From Halegenticoccus soli (GTDB lineage: Archaea; Halobacteriota; Halobacteria; Halobacteriales; Haloferacaceae), in NCBI RefSeq assembly GCF_002844195.1, contig NZ_PEND01000005.1:1-64000 (forward strand): a DNA stretch of 64,000 nt, given 5' to 3'. Every line of letters begins with the position of its first letter. The first letter of the stretch is position 1. This document shows positions 34,973 through 52,215 of this stretch, piece after piece. The notes beneath the pieces are model-generated. The model saw nothing but the letters and a program-made list of their open reading frames with translations. It searched no databases and was not told the origin of the DNA. Both the position numbers and the translations under genes were made by a program.

Positions 34973-35473
34973 GTGACCGGGGAATACATCACCTCGGAGG
35001 AGCACTTACCCGACGATCTCGACGGCGAAATCACGCTTCAGGTGACGGACACGCAAACGAAGGAGATATTCGTCACGCGCGCCCGCATCGCGCGCGACGA
35101 GGAGGACCTGACGGACCCCGATTCGCTCATCGTCGTTCGGGGCCCTCACGAAAGCATCGAAGAGCAGTGGTACATCGAAATCGAGGAGGCGGACGTCGAC
35201 CTCCGCGAGGTCGATCGCGATCTGCTGAGAGACTGCATCCAGCGGACCCGAGCCGATTCCAACGTCATCAACGCGCGCTCCGACGAATTCAGGGCGCTTC
35301 TCGCGTATCTCGTCGAGACTGGCCGGTACCCGTCCGTTTCGGAAGCCGTTCGATCGATTCTCGGCGACTACCTTTCCGAGCAGTATCCCGACCTCGTCGA
35401 CGCGTACGTGGACGTGCGGACGGAAGTCGAACAGGACGAGCTCGCCGCGCGATTAGGAGGGGACAACCCGTAA
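34973..35473 (+). CDS. Uncharacterised protein coupled to the UbiD pair
   Basis: About 166 residues from GTG 34973; an ATG at 34904 would add 23 residues of less plausible sequence. The N-terminal half is beta-rich and acidic (EITLQVTDTQTKEIFVTRARIAR). The C-terminal half looks like a ribbon-helix-helix or Arc-like segment (SVSEAVRSILGDYLSEQYPDL). The stop TAA overlaps the UbiD ATG (TAATG), so it is translationally coupled. I do not recognise the family. Possible roles are a regulator of the unit or a small subunit of the decarboxylase complex; neither is demonstrated. Confidence 0.6.
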   Translation: MTGEYITSEEHLPDDLDGEITLQVTDTQTKEIFVTRARIARDEEDLTDPDSLIVVRGPHESIEEQWYIEIEEADVDLREVDRDLLRDCIQRTRADSNVINARSDEFRALLAYLVETGRYPSVSEAVRSILGDYLSEQYPDLVDAYVDVRTEVEQDELAARLGGDNP

Positions 35474-36978
35474 TGACCGTCGACAGCCTCCGGGAGTACC
35501 TCTCTCTCCTGGAGTCACGGGGAGAACTCAACCGCATTTCGCGGGACGTTTCCTGGAACCTGCAGGCGAGCGCGGTGACGATGCGGGCTGATCAGACCGA
35601 CGACGCGGTGCCCGCCTTCGAATCGGTACCGAATTCGGGGGCGTGCGAAGCGCGGTTGATCGGCGATCCGTTTCGCGGCTCCCGCCGCCGTCCGTGGGAC
35701 CGCATCGCCGGGGCGCTCGGGCTACCGCGGGGTCTGACGGGCGGCGAGTATTACGAGGTTGTCATCGACCGCCTCAAGTCGCCGGTTCCGCCGACGGTCG
35801 TCGACCGAGAGGCGGCGCCGTGCAAGGAAGTCGTCGCGAAAGGGGAGCAGGTCAACTTGTTCGATCTCCCGTGGCCCTACATCCACGCCGGCGACGGCGG
35901 TCGGTACTCGAATCTCCACACTATCGTCACGTCGGATCCGGACTCCGAGTGGATCGACTGGTCGTATCACCGAGCGATGATCCACTCCGGGACGAAGGCG
36001 AGCGTGCTGTTCCTCGCTGGGGAACAGACGCCCAATCTCTACTACTACAAGTACGAACGGCGGGACGAACCGATGCCTATCGCGATCGCCGTGGGGACCG
36101 AACCCGCGGTTTCCCTCTCTTCGGTTATGTGGATTCCGACCGGCCGCGACGAAGCCGACTTCGCGGGCGGGTTGAAGCGGGCGCCGGTCGAACTGGTCCC
36201 GTGCGAAACGAACGATTTACTGGTGCCCGCCACCGCCGAGATCGTCATCGAGGGGTCGGTGCTCCCCGGGCGGCGGCTGGACGAGGGTCCGTTCGGCGAT
36301 TACTTCGGCTACATGCACGGACCCCGCCGATCGATGCCGGTCCTGCAGGTCGACGCGATAACCCACCGCGAACGGCCGTACGTCCCCTTCTGCGTGGAGG
36401 GGGTCGGCGTCGGCCACACGCTCAACTCCAGCACGACGATGGAGGTCGCTTGCGTCGGTCCCGATGCGACGCTCGGCCTGCGGACGGCCGGCTTCGACGT
36501 CGAACGGTGCGCTCCGTGGCGGTTCACGCCGCGAACGGTGTACACCGTCTCGACCGAGGTGTCCCGGCCGGGGTACCTACACAACCTGGCCAACTTCATC
36601 TTCACGACGTGGGGCATGCTCCACATCGACTTTTTCGTCTTCGTCGACACGGACGTCGATCCGCTCGATCAGCGCGCCGTCTTAGAGGCGATCGCGGTCA
36701 ACGCCGACCCGAACGAGGACTTCCACCAGTTCGGCGTGGAGACGATGCCGAAGGTCCCGCTCAACATCTATCAGACGCCGGAAGAGAAGGGCGACGCCGA
36801 GACGGGGACGTCGAAAACGAAGACCGCCAAGGCCTACATCGACGCGACTCGCGGCGACGACGCTCCCGCCAGGCCCGACTACCTGACCGACTCCGAACTC
36901 GTCCGGAAGGCGCGAGAGACGCTCGCGCGCGCCGGACTGCCCCTCGACGTCCAATCGCGATCGGAGGCGGCGTCGTGA
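35473..36978 (+). CDS. UbiD-family prenylated-FMN decarboxylase
   Basis: 501 residues, the standard UbiD length. Seen: SNLHTIVTSD (metal-ligand Asn region), YHRAMIHS (the His of the IHR-type motif), a GRDEADFAGGLKRAPVELV segment, and DEGPFGDYFGY, whose Glu matches the EGPFGE metal/acid motif. UbiD enzymes use prenylated FMN made by UbiX to decarboxylate or carboxylate aromatic and alpha,beta-unsaturated acids. No ubiX gene is present in the window. It is followed with a four-base overlap by a second UbiD-like protein, recalling paired UbiD systems such as phenylphosphate carboxylase or phthaloyl-CoA decarboxylase. Confidence 0.88.
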   Translation: MTVDSLREYLSLLESRGELNRISRDVSWNLQASAVTMRADQTDDAVPAFESVPNSGACEARLIGDPFRGSRRRPWDRIAGALGLPRGLTGGEYYEVVIDRLKSPVPPTVVDREAAPCKEVVAKGEQVNLFDLPWPYIHAGDGGRYSNLHTIVTSDPDSEWIDWSYHRAMIHSGTKASVLFLAGEQTPNLYYYKYERRDEPMPIAIAVGTEPAVSLSSVMWIPTGRDEADFAGGLKRAPVELVPCETNDLLVPATAEIVIEGSVLPGRRLDEGPFGDYFGYMHGPRRSMPVLQVDAITHRERPYVPFCVEGVGVGHTLNSSTTMEVACVGPDATLGLRTAGFDVERCAPWRFTPRTVYTVSTEVSRPGYLHNLANFIFTTWGMLHIDFFVFVDTDVDPLDQRAVLEAIAVNADPNEDFHQFGVETMPKVPLNIYQTPEEKGDAETGTSKTKTAKAYIDATRGDDAPARPDYLTDSELVRKARETLARAGLPLDVQSRSEAAS

Positions 36979-38369
36979 CGACGCTACGAGAACACGTCGC
37001 GGCGCTCGACGGCGCGGACGACCTCCTCCGCATCGAACAGCGCGTCCACTGGGCGACTGACGCGCCGGCGATCGCCGCGGAGGCGGCGCGCGAGAACGGG
37101 CCGGCGATCCTCTTCGAAAACGTCCCTGGGACGGCGAGGCTCGTGAGCGGGGCCTACGGCGGGCCCGACCAGATGCAGCCCCGAACGCGGATGCCGTGGT
37201 CGCGCGTCGCGGTGGCGCTCGGCCGCGACGGCGACCTACCGTACACGCGGCTCCTCCAACGCCTCTCGGCGACGGCGTCCGCGAACGCGACACCGACCCG
37301 GACGGAGCTCGCGGCGACGTACGGCGAGTCGGACCCCTATTCGCTCGGACTCCCCGCCGTCGGGTCCGCTGCGGGTCCGGCGGTCACGCTCGGGCTGATC
37401 GCCGTCTCCGCGGACGACGGGACGACGTGGGCGCCGATTCGAGGGGCGGTGAAGGGGAGCGCCGAACTCGTCGCGTCCGTTCCCGCGGCGCTCGGCGACT
37501 CCCTTTCGCCCGGAACCGACGCGACGATCGCGCTCGGCGCTCCGCTCGCCTGTCTCGTCGCGGCCGCGCTCAGGTGGACCGGCGACGCCGGGTACGGCGA
37601 TCCGCTGGGGATCGCCGGAACGCTCGACGAGGTGTCCGTCGCCGAAGCGCGGGGCGGACTCGTCCCGGCGAGCGCCGAGGCCATCCTCGACGGAACCGTG
37701 TCCGACGTCGGCGGACGCCCGTCGCGGCGGGCCGAGAGCTGGGAGTACGCCACCTCGACGACGGAGATCGGACTCCGGCTCACTGACATCGCGCTTCGGG
37801 ACGACCCGCTGATTCCGTTCACTCCGGTCGGCGCGCCGTTGGCCGACGACATCCACCTCGCCGGACTCGTCGAAGCCGCGCGGCTGTACCATCGGCTCAA
37901 CAGCTACTGGGGGGTCACTCCGGTAGAGTGGATCGCCCTCCCGGTCGAAACGAAACTGGGGATGTGTCTCGTCGCGAGCGAGATCCTCTACGCGGGATTC
38001 GAGTGGCAGCTGGCCAACACGCTGTTTTCGTTCTCGCGGCTGTTCGACAAGGTCCTCGTTCTCGACGCCGACGCGCCGGCGGCCACTCTCGCGCGGGCGT
38101 TCGACGACATGTGGGTGAAAGCCCACCCGTCTCACGACTGGCAGTTCAGCGAGCCGGCGGCGCCGGCCGCGACGGCGACGGCGTACCGTCGCGACGGGAC
38201 GCCGGGCTCGCGGCTGTACATCAACGCGACGTGGGACCCGCGGTGGGACGACGAGTACATCGCGCCGCGGGTGGGTTTCGAGACCTCGTTCCCGGACGAC
38301 GTCCGCGAGTTCGTCCTCGACAACTGGAGAGACATGGGGTTCTCGTCGACGCCGGAGGAGGAGGAGTGA
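36975..38369 (+). CDS. Degenerate UbiD-like partner protein
   Basis: 464 residues from a GTG overlapping the UbiD stop (GTGA). It keeps the UbiD scaffold: a REHVAALDGADDLLRIEQRV start, FENVPGTARLV, TPVGAPLADDIHLAGLVEAARLY, and the C-terminal part with NATWDPRWDDE. The cofactor/metal motifs are changed, however: no SNLHT-type Asn segment, no IHR-type His, and RRAESWEYAT where the first copy has DEGPFGDYFG. It is best read as a non-catalytic or structurally different partner of the upstream enzyme. UbiD pairs with dissimilar subunits are known. Confidence 0.75.
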   Translation: MTTLREHVAALDGADDLLRIEQRVHWATDAPAIAAEAARENGPAILFENVPGTARLVSGAYGGPDQMQPRTRMPWSRVAVALGRDGDLPYTRLLQRLSATASANATPTRTELAATYGESDPYSLGLPAVGSAAGPAVTLGLIAVSADDGTTWAPIRGAVKGSAELVASVPAALGDSLSPGTDATIALGAPLACLVAAALRWTGDAGYGDPLGIAGTLDEVSVAEARGGLVPASAEAILDGTVSDVGGRPSRRAESWEYATSTTEIGLRLTDIALRDDPLIPFTPVGAPLADDIHLAGLVEAARLYHRLNSYWGVTPVEWIALPVETKLGMCLVASEILYAGFEWQLANTLFSFSRLFDKVLVLDADAPAATLARAFDDMWVKAHPSHDWQFSEPAAPAATATAYRRDGTPGSRLYINATWDPRWDDEYIAPRVGFETSFPDDVREFVLDNWRDMGFSSTPEEEE

Positions 38370-44236: not shown

Positions 44237-44671
44237 ATGCCGCGCAACTACGGCAAGATCGCACTCTCGGATCGCGAACGCCGACGGCTCCTCGACGACG
44301 CCCCGGTGATGCGGTTCGCAAGCGTCGACGGCGACGGCGTGCCGCACGTCGTTCCGGTCGCCTTCGCCGAGGTCGACGGCGACCTCTGTTTCGAAACCGA
44401 CGAGGATTCGATCAAGACGCGGAACGTGCGGGAGACGGGAAAAGCCTCCGCGGTTGTCGACGCCGGCGCCGACGACTACTCGAAGCACCGCGGCGTCATG
44501 TGGCGGGGCGACGCGCGCGTCGTGGCCGACCGCGAGACGGAAATGGAGATCGAGCGCGCCCTCTTCGGGACGGTCAAATCCGTTCCCGACGCGGGCGGAC
44601 ACGAGCGGGTGAAAATCGCCCTCCGCCCGGAGACCGAGGTGTCGTGGGACTTCCGGAAACTCGCCCCCTAG
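44237..44671 (+). CDS. Pyridoxamine 5'-phosphate oxidase-like (PPOX) flavin/F420-binding protein
   Basis: 144 residues, a split-barrel fold: MRFASVDGDGVPHVVPVAFA, then LCFETDEDSIKTRNVRETG, VMWRGDARVV and ALRPETEVSWDF. Such proteins bind FMN, F420 or haem and may reduce unsaturated substrates. Which cofactor cannot be read. It points at the Paa operon, and its stop is convergent with the zinc-ribbon gene (four-base overlap), so it is probably not co-transcribed with it. Confidence 0.8.
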   Translation: MPRNYGKIALSDRERRRLLDDAPVMRFASVDGDGVPHVVPVAFAEVDGDLCFETDEDSIKTRNVRETGKASAVVDAGADDYSKHRGVMWRGDARVVADRETEMEIERALFGTVKSVPDAGGHERVKIALRPETEVSWDFRKLAP

Positions 44672-44964
44672 TCCTCGCGGCCGGTGTCCGGGCGCTTCCC
44701 GTCGTACTTGAGGCGCTCGAACACCGTGTGGCAGCTCTCGCAGTAGTACTGGCTCTTCGAGATCTCCGAACCGAACGCCGACACCCGCTCGACGTCCCGC
44801 GAGTCGCAGAAGGGGCACGCCGGCCTGTCGGTCTCGGCGGCCTCCGTCGGCGGGCGTTCGTCGATCGGTGGCCCGTCAGCCGTGGATCCATCCGGCGGAT
44901 GTCCGTCGGTCGGCGTTCCATCCCCCGGCGTTTCGTCCGGCGACTGTTCGTCAATCGCCTTCAT
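44668..44964 (-). CDS. PaaD-type zinc-ribbon protein (separated C-terminal domain of PaaD)
   Basis: 98 residues. The first 45 or so are a low-complexity Asp/Pro/Gly/Thr-rich tail. The rest is a zinc ribbon, CPFC (Cys50, 53) and CESC (Cys75, 78), with AFGSEISKSQYYC and VFERLKYDGK. In bacterial PaaD this ribbon is fused to the C-terminus of a MIP18-like domain. Here the MIP18-like part is a separate gene three places upstream. It is last in the paaA-paaD-paaB-paaC-ribbon operon and its start overlaps the paaC stop. Confidence 0.85.
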   Translation of the reverse strand: MKAIDEQSPDETPGDGTPTDGHPPDGSTADGPPIDERPPTEAAETDRPACPFCDSRDVERVSAFGSEISKSQYYCESCHTVFERLKYDGKRPDTGRED

Positions 44965-45725
44965 TCGGCGGCGAACTCCTCGTTCCTGACGCCGGTGAGG
45001 GCGTCGACGACGGACTGGTCGATCGCGCCGTCGCCGACCCGGCGGCGCGCCTCGTCCCACTCGTCCTGCGTCGGGCCGTCGCGGTCGACGCCGTCGAGGG
45101 ACACGGACGTCCCGTCGAAGAGCCGAGCGTAATGGGCGACCAGCGCGTCCCGGAGGTCGGCGGCCGAGCGATCGGCGAAGCCGGACCGAACGACCGGGTC
45201 CGAATCGGCGTCGTAGCTCTCGGGGCCGACGAACGCCAACGCCTTCGGCAGCGCGTCCTCGAACGCCCCCTGTAACTCCTCGGGGCGATCGTCGGCGAGC
45301 GTCGCCAGACGGGCGTCGTGGTACTCCAGGTGGAAGTACTCGTCCTCGCCGATCTTCCGCGCGAGGCCGCGGAAGTCGTCGGACGCGATCGAGTCGAGCA
45401 TGTACCACGCGGCTCGATCGGCCGTCGCGACGGCGACGAGGTGCTCGACCCAGCTGTCGCGCGTCGCGTCGAGCGTCGCGGCGTTGCGGAACTCCTCGGG
45501 GGCGCGATCGCCTTCGAGCCACTCCCCGTCCCGGCCCTGCTGTTCCAAGAGGCGGAACAGCTGGCGGACGTGACCCGCTTCGTCCTGCGCGGTGCTCGCG
45601 CCGCCGATGTCGTCCTCCAGCGACGGGCCGGTGAGCATCCACTCCGCGTACCGGTGCGACAGCAGGAGTTTCGTGTCGGCGATAGCCTGCACGTAGTCCA
45701 CTGCCTCGGCGGGCCACTCGCTCAC
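44961..45725 (-). CDS. paaC: Phenylacetyl-CoA epoxidase-type subunit PaaC
   Basis: 254 residues of ferritin-like helices, the structural partner of the diiron subunit PaaA. Seen: ADTKLLLSHRYAEWML, ASTAQDEAGHVRQLFRLLEQ, and IGEDEYFHLEYHDA. The latter two resemble iron-ligand helices, but PaaC is usually inactive as a metal enzyme. In the 1,2-epoxidase, PaaA and PaaC form the heterodimeric core. Four-base overlaps with both neighbours show tight translational coupling. Confidence 0.9.
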   Translation of the reverse strand: MSEWPAEAVDYVQAIADTKLLLSHRYAEWMLTGPSLEDDIGGASTAQDEAGHVRQLFRLLEQQGRDGEWLEGDRAPEEFRNAATLDATRDSWVEHLVAVATADRAAWYMLDSIASDDFRGLARKIGEDEYFHLEYHDARLATLADDRPEELQGAFEDALPKALAFVGPESYDADSDPVVRSGFADRSAADLRDALVAHYARLFDGTSVSLDGVDRDGPTQDEWDEARRRVGDGAIDQSVVDALTGVRNEEFAAE

Positions 45726-45931
45726 GGGCTCACCTCCGGCGACGGAGCCGTCCGTTCGCCCGTCACCTCGAGCAGGTGCTCCCGCGCGACGACCGCCATG
45801 TAATCCCAGCTCTCCTCGTCGAACGTCGTCCGCGCGTAGGACTTCGCCAGCGCGTCGCTGTCCGCCTTCACCCGACCGATGTGCAGAATCTCGTCGCCCG
45901 GATTGAGTCGGGCGAACACCTCGTACTTCAT
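45722..45931 (-). CDS. paaB: Phenylacetyl-CoA epoxidase-type subunit PaaB
   Basis: 69 residues (MKYEVFARLNPGDEILHIG), shorter than typical bacterial PaaB (about 95) but keeping the core: GRVKADSDALAKSYARTTF, then EESWDYMAVVAREHLLEV. PaaB bridges the PaaAC core and is needed for assembly and activity. Its place between paaC and the MIP18-type gene, with four-base overlaps at both ends, supports the call. Confidence 0.85.
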   Translation of the reverse strand: MKYEVFARLNPGDEILHIGRVKADSDALAKSYARTTFDEESWDYMAVVAREHLLEVTGERTAPSPEVSP

Positions 45932-46302
45932 AGGCTGATCCCCGCTTCGCGCATCTTCTCGCGGACCTCGGGAGTGAGCCTGTCCTTCGACCAGACCGGA
46001 TCCCAGACGATATCGATGGTTACTGATTCGACGCCGGGGACGGGACGGAGCATGCTTCTGACGTCGTCCTGGATGAAATCGTACGCGGGACACCCCATGC
46101 AGGGGAACGTCATTTCGACGGTGACGTCGCCGTCCTCGTCGCGGACGTCGTATATCATCCCCATCTCGACGAGGCTGACCGGGATGTGGGGGTCGGGGAT
46201 CTCGTCGAGGAGCGCCCACAGCTCCTCTTCGAACGCCGCGTTTCCCTCGGATCGGTCGAACCCGGGTTCCCCGGCGTCGACGGGCGTCATGTTCGCGCTC
46301 AT
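45928..46302 (-). CDS. paaD: MIP18-type PaaD (N-terminal half of the usual PaaD)
   Basis: 124 residues with the MIP18/DUF59 hallmarks: DPHIPVSLVEMGMIYDV (residues 37-53) and the CMGCP motif (68-72), followed by VWDPVWSKDRLTPEVREKM. MIP18 proteins help insert Fe-S or diiron centres. In the Paa system PaaD is an assembly factor. It lacks the C-terminal zinc ribbon, which is encoded separately at 44668. Its start overlaps the paaA stop by four bases. Confidence 0.88.
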   Translation of the reverse strand: MSANMTPVDAGEPGFDRSEGNAAFEEELWALLDEIPDPHIPVSLVEMGMIYDVRDEDGDVTVEMTFPCMGCPAYDFIQDDVRSMLRPVPGVESVTIDIVWDPVWSKDRLTPEVREKMREAGISL

Positions 46303-47252
46303 GCCGCCGGTTCCACCTTCCCGGACTGGATCATGTTCACGTACTTCTCGTTCGCCGGCCCGCGACTCCGCCAGCGGTCGATGACGTCCGACCACGAGAT
46401 CGGCTCGTCGAAGAGCCACTCCTTGTTCTCCTCGTCGTACGCCACCGGGAGGTCGTATTCGAGGACGTACTCCTCGCTCTCCTCGTCGTAGTGAGCCGGA
46501 ATGTCGATGCCGAGCTCGTCACAGAGCGGAACGGTGCTGTCCATCCAGGCCTGGCGCAGTTCGTCGTTCGACATGCCCTTGATGCGGTACTCCAGCTGGT
46601 CGTCGTGGCGCTTCTTGTCGTCGGGGAGGCCGAACCACTCGATGGCGATCGGGAACATCCAGTCGACCGCCTCCTGCAGCTTCCGCCTCGTCTTGTCGTT
46701 CTTCCGTGCGAGGCGGCGCATCCAGGTTTCGCCGTGTCGCAGGTGGAACTGCTCTTCCTTGCTCACCTTCGTCAGGGCGCGCTTCCACGGCGCGTAGGAG
46801 GTGTTCTCGTGGATGTCGCCGAGGAGGACGATCCCCGCGCGGTCGAACAACCCGTGGGCCGTGACGAGTTCGGCGAAGTTCTCGATCGGCTGGTCGAAGC
46901 CGTACGTGTTCCGCCACTCGTGGGGTTCTCGGCCGTAGATGAGCTCCTCGCGGTCCACTCCGAGATCTTCGAGGAGCCGGTAGGCGATGTGCCCGTGCCC
47001 GAGTTCGTCCTGGATGACGCTCACGCAGGAGGTGCGGGCGTTCAGGCTCGGCGCGTTCAGCGACTGGTCGTAGTACGCGGGGGCGCTCATGAGTTCGGTG
47101 TCGCCCGACACCGTGAGAATCGTCTTCAGCGCGTCGAGGTAGCCGTCCGTCATCTCGTCGACCGATTCGATCATCCGTCCGTTTTGCAGTTCCGCCTTGA
47201 ACTGCTGTTCGCTAACCATAGGTGCTTCCTCGCCCGTGAGGTTACGACTCAT
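46299..47252 (-). CDS. paaA: Phenylacetyl-CoA epoxidase-type catalytic diiron subunit PaaA
   Basis: 317 residues from ATG 47252; an ATG 11 codons later (47219) is a good alternative. The diiron ligands lie in two ExxH motifs: ELGH (Glu83, His86) and EQFH (Glu167, His170), with further helix Glu residues. In bacteria this subunit uses O2 and electrons from PaaE to epoxidise the ring of phenylacetyl-CoA. First gene of the five-gene operon. Substrate identity here is inferred from family only; benzoyl-CoA or another aryl-CoA is possible. Confidence 0.9.
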   Translation of the reverse strand: MSRNLTGEEAPMVSEQQFKAELQNGRMIESVDEMTDGYLDALKTILTVSGDTELMSAPAYYDQSLNAPSLNARTSCVSVIQDELGHGHIAYRLLEDLGVDREELIYGREPHEWRNTYGFDQPIENFAELVTAHGLFDRAGIVLLGDIHENTSYAPWKRALTKVSKEEQFHLRHGETWMRRLARKNDKTRRKLQEAVDWMFPIAIEWFGLPDDKKRHDDQLEYRIKGMSNDELRQAWMDSTVPLCDELGIDIPAHYDEESEEYVLEYDLPVAYDEENKEWLFDEPISWSDVIDRWRSRGPANEKYVNMIQSGKVEPAA

Positions 47253-47418: not shown

Positions 47419-47901
47419 ATGGAATTCACAGTGAGACAGGCACGTCCGGAGGACGGGGACGCGCTGCTCGACCTCTGGCACGGGTTCACCACGCATCTCT
47501 CCGAATACGACAACCGGTACCGACACAAGGAAACCGCCGACGAGCGCTGGCTGAAGTACTTCGAAAACCAGCTCCTCGAATCGAAGTACGGGGTCGTCTT
47601 CGTCGCCGAGCGCGAGGGAACGCTCGTCGGCGTGATCGAAGCCCGCGTCATGGGCAACCACCCGATCTTCCGCCTCGAGAATCACGGCCACGTCCACGGT
47701 CACTTCGTCGACGAAGCGTACCGGGACCAGGGCGTCGGCAGCGCCCTCCTCGAAGCCGCCGAAGAGTGGTTCGCGAGTCCGCCCCGCGAGGTCGACTTCT
47801 ACCGCATCACCACCATCGAAGGCGACGAGACGGCCGCCGAGATCTACACCGCCCTCGGGTGCAGGCCCGTCGAGCACGTCTACGAGAAGCGCCTCCGCTG
47901 A
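47419..47901 (+). CDS. GNAT-family N-acetyltransferase
   Basis: 160 residues with the GNAT core. It has acetyl-CoA-binding motif A, FVDEAYRDQGVGSALLEAAE (RDQGVG as the Q/RxxGxG loop), and a C-terminal EIYTALGCRPVE strand. The N-terminus MEFTVRQARPEDGDALLDL is typical. It is co-oriented with the ferredoxin gene two bases later, so they share a transcript. Its acceptor is unknown and the link to the Paa system is by position only. Confidence 0.88.
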   Translation: MEFTVRQARPEDGDALLDLWHGFTTHLSEYDNRYRHKETADERWLKYFENQLLESKYGVVFVAEREGTLVGVIEARVMGNHPIFRLENHGHVHGHFVDEAYRDQGVGSALLEAAEEWFASPPREVDFYRITTIEGDETAAEIYTALGCRPVEHVYEKRLR

Positions 47902-47903
47902 CC

Positions 47904-48185
47904 ATGGTCGAAACGTACGAGGTGGAATTCGTCGACGAGGGGCTCACCATAGAGGTGCCGGAGGACACCCCCATTCTGGAGGCGGCCGAGGAGTCGGGCC
48001 TCGACCTCTCCTACCAGTGTCGGATGGGCGTCTGCGGCGTCTGCTCCGGGCTGATAATCGAGGGCGAGGTCGACCAGACCGAGGGAATGTTTCTCTCGGA
48101 CGGCGAGCGCGCGGAAGGCTACGTGCTTACCTGTATCGCGAAGCCGCTGTCGGACCTGAAGATCGAGACCAACACCGGCCCGTAA
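47904..48185 (+). CDS. Plant-type 2Fe-2S ferredoxin
   Basis: 93 residues, one [2Fe-2S] cluster held by Cys39, Cys44, Cys47 and Cys77 (the C-x4-C-x2-C pattern in QCRMGVCGVC). Acidic, as expected for a halophile. It lies beside the Paa operon, which lacks the flavin-containing reductase PaaE whose C-terminus is a ferredoxin of this type. It is therefore a candidate electron carrier to the epoxidase. A separate reductase would be required and is not seen here. Confidence 0.93.
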   Translation: MVETYEVEFVDEGLTIEVPEDTPILEAAEESGLDLSYQCRMGVCGVCSGLIIEGEVDQTEGMFLSDGERAEGYVLTCIAKPLSDLKIETNTGP

Positions 48186-48820: not shown

Positions 48821-50488
48821 TTATACGGCCCGGTCGACCCGCTTCCGCTCTCGTTCTCGAAGTTTCACTCGCTGGATCTTCCCGGTCTCCGTCCGCGGAA
48901 GTTCGTCGACGAACTCGATCTCGCGGGGGTACTTGTACGGCGCGAGCGTGTTCTTTACCTCGTTTTGGAGCGCTTCGACGAGCGCGGAGTCGGGCGAGAA
49001 CTCGGGCGTCGGTACGACAAACGCCTTGACGATCTGCCCGCGCTCCTCGTCCGGACTCCCGACGACCGCCACTTCGGCGACGGCGTCGTGGCCTTCGAGC
49101 ACCGCTTCGACCTCTGGACCCGGAATGTTGTACCCGCTCGAAATGATGAGGTCGTCGCGGCGGGACTTGTACTCGAACCGGCCGTCCTCCCGCTGGACGA
49201 AGATGTCTCCGGGGAGGCACCATCCGTCGACGACGACTTCCCCCTGTTTGTCCGGTCGGTTCCAGTAGGTCATCCCGGTCGGTCCGCGCACGGCCAGCAG
49301 CCCAGGCGTCCCCCGGGAGACTTCCTCGCGGGTGTCCGGATCGACGATCTTGCACTCGTAGCCGGGAACGGGGTAACCGGTCGCGCTCGGATCGACCTCG
49401 TCCGTCCGCCGGTGACTGATGAAGATGTGGAGCATCTCCGTCGTCCCGATGCCGTCGAGGAGCTTGATGCCGTACTGCTCTCGGAAGCGCTCGTACGTCG
49501 TCGGCGTCAGCGGTTCGCCCGCGCTCATCCCGAGCCGGAGCGAACTCACGTCGTACTCCTCGGGGCCGTCGGGGTGGTTCGCCAGAATCTGGTTGTACGC
49601 CGTCGGAATTGAACAGAAGATCGTGATGCCGTGGTCCTCGATCGCTTCGAGCAGCGTCTGCGGGGTCGCGTCCTCGACGAGACTCGTCGCGGCCCCGAAC
49701 CGGAGCGGGAACGTCACGAGGCCGCCGTACCCGTAGGCGAACGGCAGCGGCGGGTTCCCACCGAAGACGTCGTCCTCCGTCGGATCGAGGCAGTACCGCG
49801 CGTAGCTGTCGGCGGTCGCCAGAAGCTGACGGTGCGTGTGAAACGTCCCTTTCGGCCGGCCGGTCGTCCCGCTCGTGTAGAGCATGAGCGCGAGGTCGTC
49901 CCGTTCCGTCTCGTACGGGTCGAGGTCGGCCGAGGCCGCCTCGACCAGTTCGTCGAAGTCGCGGTGATCGTGGGAGACGGCCGTCCGGTCGACGACGACG
50001 ACGTTTTCGAGCGTGTCGAGGTCGGGGAGCGCGGCGTCGAGCTCCTCGAGGAGTTTGTCGTAGACGATGGCGACCGTCGCCTCGGCGTCGTTTACGATGT
50101 AGGTCAGCTCCTTCGCGCGGAGCAGTTTCATCGACGGGAGCGCGACGGCACCGATCTTCTGGACCGCGAGACAGGAGACGACGGCCTCCGGTCGGTTGGA
50201 GAACCGAACGAGGACGCGATCGCCCGGTTCGACGCCCAGGTCGAGCAGGGCGTTTCCGAGTCGGTTCACCCGCTCGCGTAACTCGGCGTAGGTGATTTCA
50301 CGGTCCTCGAAGCGGACGGCGACGTTGTCCCCGCGCCCCTCCGAAACGTGTCTGTCCACCAGCTCCTCCGTGACGTTTAGTTCCCGCGAGTAGTGGAGCT
50401 CGGGCAGCGGGTAACTAAAATCCGGACTCTCGTCTGCCTCCGGGAGGTATCCCTGTGGGATAGACTCTTGCATGTCTGCTTGTACCAT
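48821..50488 (-). CDS. Acyl/aryl-CoA ligase (benzoate-CoA ligase-like, ANL superfamily)
   Basis: 555 residues. Motifs: phosphate loop LYTSGTTGRPKGT, GIGTTEM, YKSRRDDLIISSGYNI and the C-terminal catalytic Lys in ETGKIQRVKL. Length and spacing resemble benzoate/2-aminobenzoate-CoA ligases more than PaaK (about 440 residues). It would activate an aromatic or related acid with ATP to the CoA ester used by the epoxidase. The gene follows the CoA-transferase pair on the same strand, with about 55 bp between. Confidence 0.88.
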   Translation of the reverse strand: MVQADMQESIPQGYLPEADESPDFSYPLPELHYSRELNVTEELVDRHVSEGRGDNVAVRFEDREITYAELRERVNRLGNALLDLGVEPGDRVLVRFSNRPEAVVSCLAVQKIGAVALPSMKLLRAKELTYIVNDAEATVAIVYDKLLEELDAALPDLDTLENVVVVDRTAVSHDHRDFDELVEAASADLDPYETERDDLALMLYTSGTTGRPKGTFHTHRQLLATADSYARYCLDPTEDDVFGGNPPLPFAYGYGGLVTFPLRFGAATSLVEDATPQTLLEAIEDHGITIFCSIPTAYNQILANHPDGPEEYDVSSLRLGMSAGEPLTPTTYERFREQYGIKLLDGIGTTEMLHIFISHRRTDEVDPSATGYPVPGYECKIVDPDTREEVSRGTPGLLAVRGPTGMTYWNRPDKQGEVVVDGWCLPGDIFVQREDGRFEYKSRRDDLIISSGYNIPGPEVEAVLEGHDAVAEVAVVGSPDEERGQIVKAFVVPTPEFSPDSALVEALQNEVKNTLAPYKYPREIEFVDELPRTETGKIQRVKLRERERKRVDRAV

Positions 50489-50543: not shown

Positions 50544-51323
50544 CTACTGCGTCCAGAACCCGTCCGGATCGAACCTGCGTGTGAGCGACAGGACTTCCTC
50601 GGTCGGTTCCGGCGTCGTCGTCACCTCGCCGATACCGACGTCCTCCGCGGTCTTGAGCTCCCACGGAAAGTCGGGACGGATCTCGTCGACCGTGACGCCG
50701 GGATGGACGGATCGGAGGTAGAGTTCCCCGTCGGCGTCGAAGCCGAAGCTCGCCTTCGAGGTGACTAACGCGACCGGTCCGCCGCCGGGAACCGCGTTCG
50801 CCTCCCGCCAATCGCCGCCGGTTCCGTGGCCGGGGCTCGTGTTGTAGTGCACCCTCTCTACGAACCGGCGCGATTCGTGCGCCATCAGAATGACGGTTCG
50901 ATTCGCCATGCAGGCGATGTCGCACGCGCCGCCGCTGCCCGGTAACCGAATCTCCCGGTCGCCCGCGCGAACACGCGTCGTGTTCAGATTGCCGTGGCGG
51001 TCGATCTCGGCGCCGCCGAGGAACCCGACGTCGATGTCGCCCCGCTGGAGGCGGCTCATGATGTCGAGCATGCCCGTCGTCGAGACCGCCCGATCGAGGT
51101 TCGGGAGGTCGCACATCGTGTGCAGGAACCCGTCCGCGGGGTCGTCGCGGACGACGCCGCTCTCGTAGACCGCCATCGCGTTCGGCGCGTGTGTGCTCAC
51201 CGCGACCTGAAACGCGATAAGCGGCAGCCGCATGCCGACGAACGCCGTGTCGCCGTCTTCGATCTCGCGCGCCGCGGCGCTCACCATCAGCTCTCGATCC
51301 GTGTAGCCGCGCTCACCGGCCAT
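50544..51323 (-). CDS. CoA-transferase-like subunit beta
   Basis: 259 residues with a class I CoA-transferase fold: DTAFVGMRLPLIAFQVA, YESGVVRDDPADGFLHTM, and GSGGACDIACMA. It overlaps the alpha-subunit stop by 11 bp. It belongs to the glutaconate/IpdB-like branch, in which some members are true transferases and others (IpdAB) are ring hydrolases. I cannot place it in either from sequence alone. Confidence 0.82.
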   Translation of the reverse strand: MAGERGYTDRELMVSAAAREIEDGDTAFVGMRLPLIAFQVAVSTHAPNAMAVYESGVVRDDPADGFLHTMCDLPNLDRAVSTTGMLDIMSRLQRGDIDVGFLGGAEIDRHGNLNTTRVRAGDREIRLPGSGGACDIACMANRTVILMAHESRRFVERVHYNTSPGHGTGGDWREANAVPGGGPVALVTSKASFGFDADGELYLRSVHPGVTVDEIRPDFPWELKTAEDVGIGEVTTTPEPTEEVLSLTRRFDPDGFWTQ

Positions 51324-52215
51324 AGGTCACCTCCGCGGCGACGGTCGGTTCGGACACGTCGAGGTTCCCCGGATCGCCGAGCACGTCGAGGTACCCCGCG
51401 CGTCCGTCGACGCCGCGAACCCACTTGTCGGCCCACTCGTCGAAGGCCGCCCGCGTGTCAGTCGAGCGGTGGTATCGGAGGTAGTACTCGTTGTCGCGGT
51501 TGTAGCGGCCGGTCAGCGGCGACGGGTGCGCTCCGTAGGGACATTCGACGACGGCGGCGACCTGCTCGCGGGTGATCGCCACCCGACTCGGATCGCTCTT
51601 TATCACCTCCGGGTCGACGAGTTCCTCGGCGACGACGATGACGTTCTCCGCCGCCCCGACGGCGGGGTTCATCGCGCCCGCGTTCCCCCAGAAGTGGGCG
51701 TCGCCGTACGCGTTCGCCCGCTGGACGTGAACGACGGTCCAATCCGGGCGGATCGCGGGAACGAGGGCGAGCCGGTCCCCGGAGAAGGGGTCCTCGGCCT
51801 CGACGAACAGGTCGCTTTCGTCGAACACGTCACTTCCGAGCAGCGAGCGGGTCGGGAGGTACGGGACGCCCATCGCGCCGGCCTGCAGCGCGAGAGCGAT
51901 GCTCAGGTTGGAGTGGTTCTCGACCGCGAGGCTCCCCGATTCGACCGCCTCTCGGAACCGGTAGCCCGTTCCGGCGCTGACGTTGCCGACCCACGCGGCG
52001 CGGACGCGATCGACGAGGCCTGCGCCGATGAGCTGGTCGAACAGGATGTCGCTGATCGGCCCGATGAGGGTCAACTCGTCCGTGTTCTGTCGGATGAGCT
52101 CGTGCCCGGCGGCGAAGGGGATCGCGTGTTCGAGCGCGAGGCCGAGCGCGACCGAATCCCCGGGTTGAATCCGCTCGATGGCTTCACTCATCGAAGCGCG
52201 CTTCTCTCGTGGCAT
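51313..52215 (-). CDS. CoA-transferase-like subunit alpha
   Basis: About 300 residues from ATG 52215. The alternative GTG at 52230 is less likely because a TATA-like TTTATA (52241-52247) then sits too close. Seen: MSEAIERIQPGDSVALGLAL, AAWVGNVSAGTGYRF and HFWGNAGAMNPAVGAAE. Together with the beta subunit it forms a heteromeric class I CoA-transferase-like enzyme. It may transfer CoA to the substrate acid or open a ring as IpdAB does in steroid catabolism. First gene of a unit with the ligase. Confidence 0.82.
   Translation of the reverse strand: MPREKRASMSEAIERIQPGDSVALGLALEHAIPFAAGHELIRQNTDELTLIGPISDILFDQLIGAGLVDRVRAAWVGNVSAGTGYRFREAVESGSLAVENHSNLSIALALQAGAMGVPYLPTRSLLGSDVFDESDLFVEAEDPFSGDRLALVPAIRPDWTVVHVQRANAYGDAHFWGNAGAMNPAVGAAENVIVVAEELVDPEVIKSDPSRVAITREQVAAVVECPYGAHPSPLTGRYNRDNEYYLRYHRSTDTRAAFDEWADKWVRGVDGRAGYLDVLGDPGNLDVSEPTVAAEVTYGR

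What the first reader, a model, noticed from the sequence alone, without database searches (positions are those of the whole stretch)
44668..46302. PaaD split into two genes that flank paaB and paaC
In bacterial PaaD a MIP18-like domain and a zinc ribbon are one protein. Here the MIP18 part (45928-46302) and the ribbon (44668-44964) are encoded at opposite ends of paaB-paaC, all joined by four-base overlaps. The ribbon protein also has a new acidic Pro/Asp-rich N-terminal tail. A split assembly factor in a coupled operon implies that the two halves still act together, or that each serves a different subunit.
Basis: partly seen in the sequence, partly recalled or inferred. Interest (0 to 1): 0.55.

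Follow-up and report, generated by a model that had tools for sequence, protein, structure and literature searches.

The report
Two-piece PaaD in Paa-like oxygenase operon
A helper protein that is one piece in most aromatic-degrading bacteria is made here as two separate proteins, and this turns out to be the normal layout of a widespread, little-described family of aromatic-acid oxygenases in archaea and bacteria, with the one-piece form probably the later invention.

Summary
In detail: paaA, MIP18/PaaD, paaB, paaC and a PaaD-type zinc ribbon lie in that order on the minus strand with four-base overlaps. 'PaaD split into two' is probably the wrong direction. NCBIfam already models separate haloarchaeal PaaD and ribbon proteins, and the same genome has a canonical operon with the two side by side. 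The window operon is a divergent paralogue, below every NCBIfam PaaA-D cut-off. It belongs to an A-D-B-C-ribbon family: 44 of 44 haloarchaeal loci and 67 of 68 readable loci from a genome scan (Acidobacteriota, Chloroflexota, Actinomycetota, Bacillota and others), none fused. Trees rooted by the PaaA/PaaC duplication or by other MIP18 proteins put fused PaaD in a single nested clade. The ribbon lacks the fifth cysteine found in all 16 canonical ribbons sampled. The acidic tail is not conserved. Most likely MIP18 and ribbon together mature the di-iron oxygenase: they stay with A-B-C in bacterial operons, where 0 of 80 loci have a linked ferredoxin or PaaE reductase. A benzoate-CoA-ligase neighbour suggests another substrate than phenylacetyl-CoA.

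The parts
46299..47219 (-). PaaA-type di-iron catalytic subunit (306 aa)
   Evidence: PF05138 208.9 bits; six metal-ligand positions kept; below TIGR02156 cut-off, 140.7 against 280
45928..46302 (-). MIP18-domain protein, the N-terminal half of PaaD as a separate gene (124 aa)
   Evidence: PF01883 74.9 bits; NF041868 98.1 bits against cut-off 180, TIGR02159 positions 1-89; predicted fold matches DUF59/SufT structures, Foldseek E 6.8e-11
45722..45931 (-). PaaB-type bridging subunit (69 aa)
   Evidence: PF06243 17.7 bits, TIGR02157 19.8 bits, both below cut-off; position and conservation
44961..45725 (-). PaaC-type structural subunit (254 aa), GTG start
   Evidence: PF05138 84.3 bits; TIGR02158 44.6 bits against 133
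44668..44964 (-). PaaD-type zinc ribbon as a separate gene (98 aa), with a 49-residue acidic Pro/Asp-rich N-terminal tail
   Evidence: PF23451 58.3 bits; TIGR02159 positions 90-144; three-strand ribbon predicted with high confidence, tail with low
47904..48185 (+). [2Fe-2S] plant-type ferredoxin, likely electron donor (divergent neighbour)
   Evidence: PF00111, TIGR02008 97.5 bits over cut-off; a ferredoxin-type match lies in 44 of 44 haloarchaeal loci
47419..47901 (+). GNAT acetyltransferase, role unknown (divergent neighbour)
   Evidence: PF00583; 44 of 44 haloarchaeal loci
48821..50473 (-). Benzoate-CoA ligase family enzyme, likely makes the CoA substrate
   Evidence: TIGR02262 407.4 bits over cut-off 375; best solved relative benzoate-CoA ligase 2v7b; its cluster in 37 of 44 haloarchaeal loci

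Best explanation
The five genes are the haloarchaeal form of a distinct A-D-B-C-E family of Paa-type di-iron CoA-thioester oxygenases. MIP18 (D) and zinc ribbon (E) are a two-piece PaaD. Shown: identity of the parts, conserved order, absence of fused forms in this family, one fused clade nested among unfused relatives. Inferred: the unfused state is ancestral and bacterial PaaD arose by one fusion in the canonical phenylacetyl-CoA operon. Inferred: D and E work together as a maturation factor whose client is the oxygenase core (iron loading or assembly of PaaA within A-B-C), not the Fe-S reductase; the ribbon holds Zn with four Cys and may dock D on A/C. In haloarchaea electrons probably come from the linked [2Fe-2S] ferredoxin. 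The substrate is probably an aryl-carboxylic-acid CoA ester made by the linked benzoate-type ligase.
For: Profile tiling 1-89 / 90-144 of TIGR02159. Order A-D-B-C-ribbon in 44 of 44 haloarchaeal loci; in 67 of the 68 genome-scan loci that reach past paaC, of 80 (66, plus L128; 12 end too early); also in 2 of 2 Thermus plasmids and 1 Agrobacterium plasmid. PaaA tree rooted by PaaC: family one clade 97/89, fused one clade 100/95, one fused/split change. MIP18 tree rooted by 16 other PF01883 proteins: all Paa MIP18 one clade 98/91, fused one clade 99/93. Fifth ribbon Cys in 16 of 16 canonical (8 fused, 8 split) and 0 of 117 family ribbons, so ribbon type follows enzyme type. Four ribbon Cys invariant in 68 rows, MIP18 Cys invariant in 78. 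PaaA metal ligands kept. A linked ferredoxin or PaaE is found in 0 of 80 bacterial loci, yet D and E remain. 27 of 43 haloarchaeal genomes with this operon have no other ribbon match, so it stands alone. PaaD is needed in vivo but not in vitro (PMC4498308 and PMC9493321, passages).
Against: No binding, metal or growth data. Co-occurrence in an operon does not show that D and E touch. In three distant haloarchaeal loci (L094-L096) the MIP18 gene lies apart, beside GNAT and ferredoxin, which would fit a ferredoxin client. In L189 the ribbon is about 4 kb upstream of paaA. The window MIP18 has H39 where E is nearly invariant. Support for the family in the MIP18 tree is only 75/82, on 119 columns. 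Only 8 fused PaaD rows were used. The 0 of 80 test is a phmmer search with a cut-off, and 26 of the 80 loci are 12 kb or shorter. The ribbon model had no significant Foldseek match (best E 0.12).
Confidence: 0.6

Rival explanations
1. PaaD was ancestrally fused and was split separately in the A-D-B-C-E family and in canonical haloarchaeal operons.
For: In 10 of 391 Halobacteria genomes the canonical D and E lie in one frame with a single in-frame stop, as a recent fission would leave them. Fused and canonical haloarchaeal MIP18 are sisters, so within that pair the direction is open.
Against: Needs at least two fissions against one fusion on the rooted PaaA tree; in A-D-B-C-E the halves are separated by B and C, not just by a stop.
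Confidence: 0.2
2. The two proteins have parted company: MIP18 serves an Fe-S client such as the ferredoxin, the ribbon serves PaaA/PaaC as a separate assembly or structural factor.
For: MIP18 lies with GNAT and ferredoxin, away from A-B-C-ribbon, in L094-L096; MIP18 folds like SufT/CIA2 proteins.
Against: In 44 of 44 haloarchaeal and 67 of 68 readable scan loci MIP18 stays behind paaA, and a linked ferredoxin was found in 0 of 80 bacterial loci.
Confidence: 0.2
3. The operon is just a diverged phenylacetyl-CoA epoxidase, a spare copy of the canonical one.
For: PaaA keeps the di-iron ligands; crotonase-type neighbours are common to both.
Against: Scores far below NCBIfam PaaA, PaaB, PaaC and PaaD cut-offs; benzoate-CoA-ligase neighbour; no other ribbon in 27 of 43 genomes; separate deep clade.
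Confidence: 0.25

Closest known systems
Bacterial PaaD (TIGR02159; PF01883 + PF23451 in one chain)
   Same: Both domains, in the same order along the profile; linked to paaA-paaB-paaC
   Different: Here two genes kept apart by paaB and paaC; ribbon lacks the fifth Cys of all 16 canonical ribbons sampled
Haloarchaeal PaaD and 'PaaE' (NF041868, NF041869), as in Haloferax mediterranei pHME505 and in this genome's own contig C6
   Same: MIP18 and ribbon are separate genes
   Different: Canonical order A-B-C-D-E with D and E adjacent; window proteins score below both cut-offs
SufT / DUF59 / CIA2 (MIP18 family)
   Same: Fold and conserved Cys of the MIP18 half
   Different: Paa MIP18 proteins form their own clade, 98/91, against 16 other PF01883 proteins
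1,2-phenylacetyl-CoA epoxidase PaaABCE
   Same: PaaA/PaaC di-iron fold family and PaaB; metal ligands in PaaA
   Different: Gene order A-D-B-C-E, no PaaE reductase in the operon, benzoate-type ligase nearby, scores below all equivalog cut-offs

Membership tests
Bacterial PaaD (TIGR02159) | MIP18 domain and PaaD ribbon both present | tested here: met
   PF01883 and PF23451 over cut-off, on two proteins
Bacterial PaaD (TIGR02159) | Both domains in one chain, score over 108.15 bits | tested here: not met
   72.4 and 36.2 bits on separate proteins
Bacterial PaaD (TIGR02159) | Fifth Cys at loop position 16 of the ribbon (marker found here, from 16 canonical ribbons) | tested here: not met
   16 of 16 canonical, 0 of 117 in this family, the window included
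Haloarchaeal PaaD/'PaaE' (NF041868/NF041869) | Scores over 180 and 100 bits | tested here: not met
   98.1 and 35.2 bits
Haloarchaeal PaaD/'PaaE' (NF041868/NF041869) | Separate MIP18 and ribbon genes in a paa operon | tested here: met
   canonical example
Phenylacetyl-CoA epoxidase | NCBIfam equivalog cut-offs for PaaA, PaaB, PaaC | tested here: not met
   140.7/280, 19.8/85.45, 44.6/133.35 bits
Phenylacetyl-CoA epoxidase | Di-iron ligands in PaaA | tested here: met
   All six positions in the window PaaA; in the 30 rows of this family five positions are invariant and one is kept in 29; that these are the ligands is recalled, not from a call
Phenylacetyl-CoA epoxidase | Acts on phenylacetyl-CoA | not testable with these tools
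   needs enzyme assay
SufT | Branches with SufT-type MIP18 proteins | tested here: not met
A-D-B-C-E family (named here) | Order A-MIP18-B-C-ribbon, separate genes, PaaA in the 30-row clade | tested here: met

The most novel reading that the evidence does not exclude
A large, so far undescribed family of Paa-type oxygenases, spread over many bacterial phyla and haloarchaea, attacks benzoyl-CoA-like substrates rather than phenylacetyl-CoA, and is matured by an ancestral two-protein di-iron metallochaperone (MIP18 + zinc ribbon) from which the fused bacterial PaaD was made once.
Probability: 0.25. Interest if true: 0.75.

Novelty: new variant of a known kind. Interest (0 to 1): 0.5.

Why it matters
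PaaD has been called a protein of unknown function, needed in vivo but not in vitro (PMC4498308, PMC9493321, passages). A family in which its two domains are separate genes lets each be deleted, swapped or fused on its own. Bacterial operons with no linked Fe-S reductase found point to the oxygenase core as the client, a question PMC4498308 leaves open (PaaE or PaaA). It also corrects naming: NCBIfam calls the haloarchaeal ribbon 'PaaE', although it matches the PaaD ribbon and not the PaaE reductase. An earlier survey (PMC13186573, passages) anchored on phenylacetate-CoA ligase would probably not see these operons, since their ligase is of the benzoate type; that is my inference.

Tried and rejected
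Ribbon against solved structures by sequence: no significant match (best E 0.7). Ribbon model against PDB: best Foldseek E 0.12, VIA Z 5.1 to the NrdR zinc ribbon, which may be only the common ribbon arrangement. The small subunit of a UbiD-type decarboxylase (ShVdcCD) appears among weak hits; UbiD genes lie nearby, but the PF23451 and TIGR02159 matches tie this ribbon to PaaD, so I did not follow it. The acidic tail as a conserved module: rejected. Four-base overlaps as a conserved feature: rejected, 2 of 44 loci. Substrate from NCBIfam names of the crotonase and aldehyde dehydrogenase: no equivalog passed its cut-off in the rows shown. Bulk Pfam/NCBIfam tally of 87 bacterial neighbours: crotonases 8, ABC 5, aldehyde dehydrogenases 4; only the first 25 of 125 Pfam families are shown, so a single Fer2 cannot be excluded there. 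Literature: no paper on this family was seen in searches; the library holds open-licence papers only.

A complex prediction of MIP18 with ribbon was not possible with the tools. One search used 64 bacterial loci (those over 9 kb, plus one Thermus plasmid).

Full report
What is there. On the minus strand, 47219 down to 44668, lie paaA, a MIP18-domain gene, paaB, paaC and a zinc-ribbon gene, each overlapping the next by four bases. The MIP18 protein and the ribbon protein match positions 1-89 and 90-144 of the 146-position bacterial PaaD model.

Already known part. NCBIfam has equivalog models for a haloarchaeal PaaD of 127 residues and for a haloarchaeal ribbon of 56 residues, which it names PaaE. 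Haloferax mediterranei is annotated that way. The window's own genome has such a canonical operon on contig C6: A-B-C-D-ribbon, D and ribbon side by side. No unbroken fused PaaD was found in 391 Halobacteria genomes: 10 pass the TIGR02159 cut-off and each has one in-frame stop. A split PaaD as such is therefore not new.

What is different here. The five window proteins score below all NCBIfam PaaA-D cut-offs. PaaA of this type occurs in 43 of 391 Halobacteria genomes, the window's own included (71-83% identity to the window, three at 59-61%); four more matches lie at 41-44%, and the rest of those listed, mostly canonical, at 29-37%. Plasmid records show it in Haladaptatus, Haloterrigena, Halalkalicoccus, Thermus thermophilus (53%) and Agrobacterium (38%). 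The 80 are those most like the Thermus protein, so distant members are under-sampled.

Gene order. A-MIP18-B-C-ribbon with separate genes is found in 44 of 44 haloarchaeal loci (window, one plasmid, 42 genome loci) and in 67 of the 68 scan loci that extend past paaC; 12 of the 80 end earlier. The exception, L189, has its ribbon about 4 kb upstream. L169 has a gap of about 4 kb inside the operon. At least 23 scan loci have two paaB-like genes in tandem. No member of this family in these sets has a fused protein. L183 (Calidifontibacillus) carries this operon and, 2 kb on, a canonical operon with fused PaaD. Among 199 genomes of the order of G396 (L183's genome), 83 have a PaaD ribbon: 81 in frames of 160-230 residues, as expected for fused PaaD, and 7 in frames of 61-73 residues, as expected for separate ribbons; five genomes have both (frame length is the only basis). 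Of 12 bacterial genomes with this operon, three also have a ribbon in a long frame of canonical type.

Direction of change. In a PaaA tree rooted by PaaC paralogues, this family is one clade (97/89), fused PaaD operons are one clade (100/95) nested among canonical split ones, and one fused/split change suffices (a quick 92-row tree agrees). In a MIP18 tree rooted by 16 other PF01883 proteins, Paa MIP18 proteins are one clade (98/91), canonical ones one clade (96/87), fused ones one clade (99/93), this family 75/82. Parsimony thus favours fusion as the later event. With 8 fused rows and canonical haloarchaeal rows as close sisters, fission cannot be excluded.

The ribbon. CxxC, 21 residues, CxxC is kept in 44 of 44 haloarchaeal, 72 of 74 other family ribbons (one has 22, L181 is broken) and 16 of 16 canonical ones. 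Canonical ribbons, fused or not, have a fifth Cys at loop position 16 (16 of 16); family ribbons have none there (0 of 117). The ribbon type follows the enzyme type, not the fusion state. The ribbon is predicted with confidence and the tail is not. The tail varies from 7 to 59 residues among the 44 haloarchaeal loci.

How it probably works. PaaD is described as needed in vivo but not for catalysis in vitro, with a possible role in iron incorporation or maturation (PMC4498308 and PMC9493321, passages only). In this family both halves remain with A-B-C. A linked ferredoxin is found in 44 of 44 haloarchaeal loci but a ferredoxin or PaaE-like match in 0 of 80 bacterial loci, 54 of which are longer than 12 kb. 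This points to the oxygenase core as client of D and E. The window PaaA keeps all six ligand positions; PaaC has Lys instead of the first Glu in 28 of 30 rows. I infer a two-piece maturation factor for PaaA; that the two pieces bind each other is not shown. Against it, in L094-L096 the MIP18 gene sits with GNAT and ferredoxin, away from A-B-C-ribbon.

Substrate. The linked ligase passes the benzoate-CoA-ligase family cut-off (407.4 against 375.25) and its best solved relative is benzoate-CoA ligase. Its cluster is in 37 of 44 haloarchaeal but only 12 of 64 bacterial loci; crotonases are in 35 and aldehyde dehydrogenases in 26 of 64. In 27 of 43 haloarchaeal genomes the operon's ribbon is the only one, so the enzyme does not seem to depend on a canonical paa operon. 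An aryl-carboxyl-CoA substrate is my guess, not a result.

Verdict. Observation confirmed; interpretation partly supported. It is a new variant of a known kind: a two-piece PaaD in a separate, widespread Paa-like oxygenase family on which my paper searches found nothing.

Noticed in passing
window 47419-47901 (+): A GNAT acetyltransferase lies next to the ferredoxin and operon in 44 of 44 haloarchaeal loci and in distant loci L094-L096, but in 0 of 80 bacterial ones; its role is unknown.
   Followed up: partly
NF041869; L196:7527-7694; window 44668-44964: NCBIfam and RefSeq name the haloarchaeal PaaD-type ribbon 'PaaE', the name of the bacterial Fe-S reductase.
   Followed up: partly
L111-L168, L107, L110: Many bacterial operons of this family carry two paaB-like genes in tandem (23 of 80 loci with full order, plus both Thermus plasmids).
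   Followed up: no
window 44961-45725 (-): PaaC of this family has Lys at the first metal-ligand position in 28 of 30 rows, while canonical haloarchaeal PaaC keeps Glu/Asp in 8 of 8 and bacterial PaaC varies.
   Followed up: no
H45-H49: The ribbon has no listed gene in 5 of 12 haloarchaeal plasmids with the operon (the PLSDB table is incomplete).
   Followed up: no
L267-L270 and six further places: Canonical haloarchaeal D and ribbon are in one frame with a single stop between them in 10 of 391 genomes.
   Followed up: no
L094, L095, L096: MIP18 lies away from A-B-C-ribbon, beside GNAT and ferredoxin, on the opposite strand.
   Followed up: partly
window 50544-52191 (-): CoA-transferase pair; the 51313-52191 subunit is most like glutaconate CoA-transferase among solved chains. 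Its clusters occur in 20 and 21 of 44 haloarchaeal loci.
   Followed up: no
window 35473-38369 (+): Two neighbouring UbiD-type genes (the first matches PF01977; the Haladaptatus relative L108 has both annotated as UbiD family) recur beside the operon in relatives.
   Followed up: no
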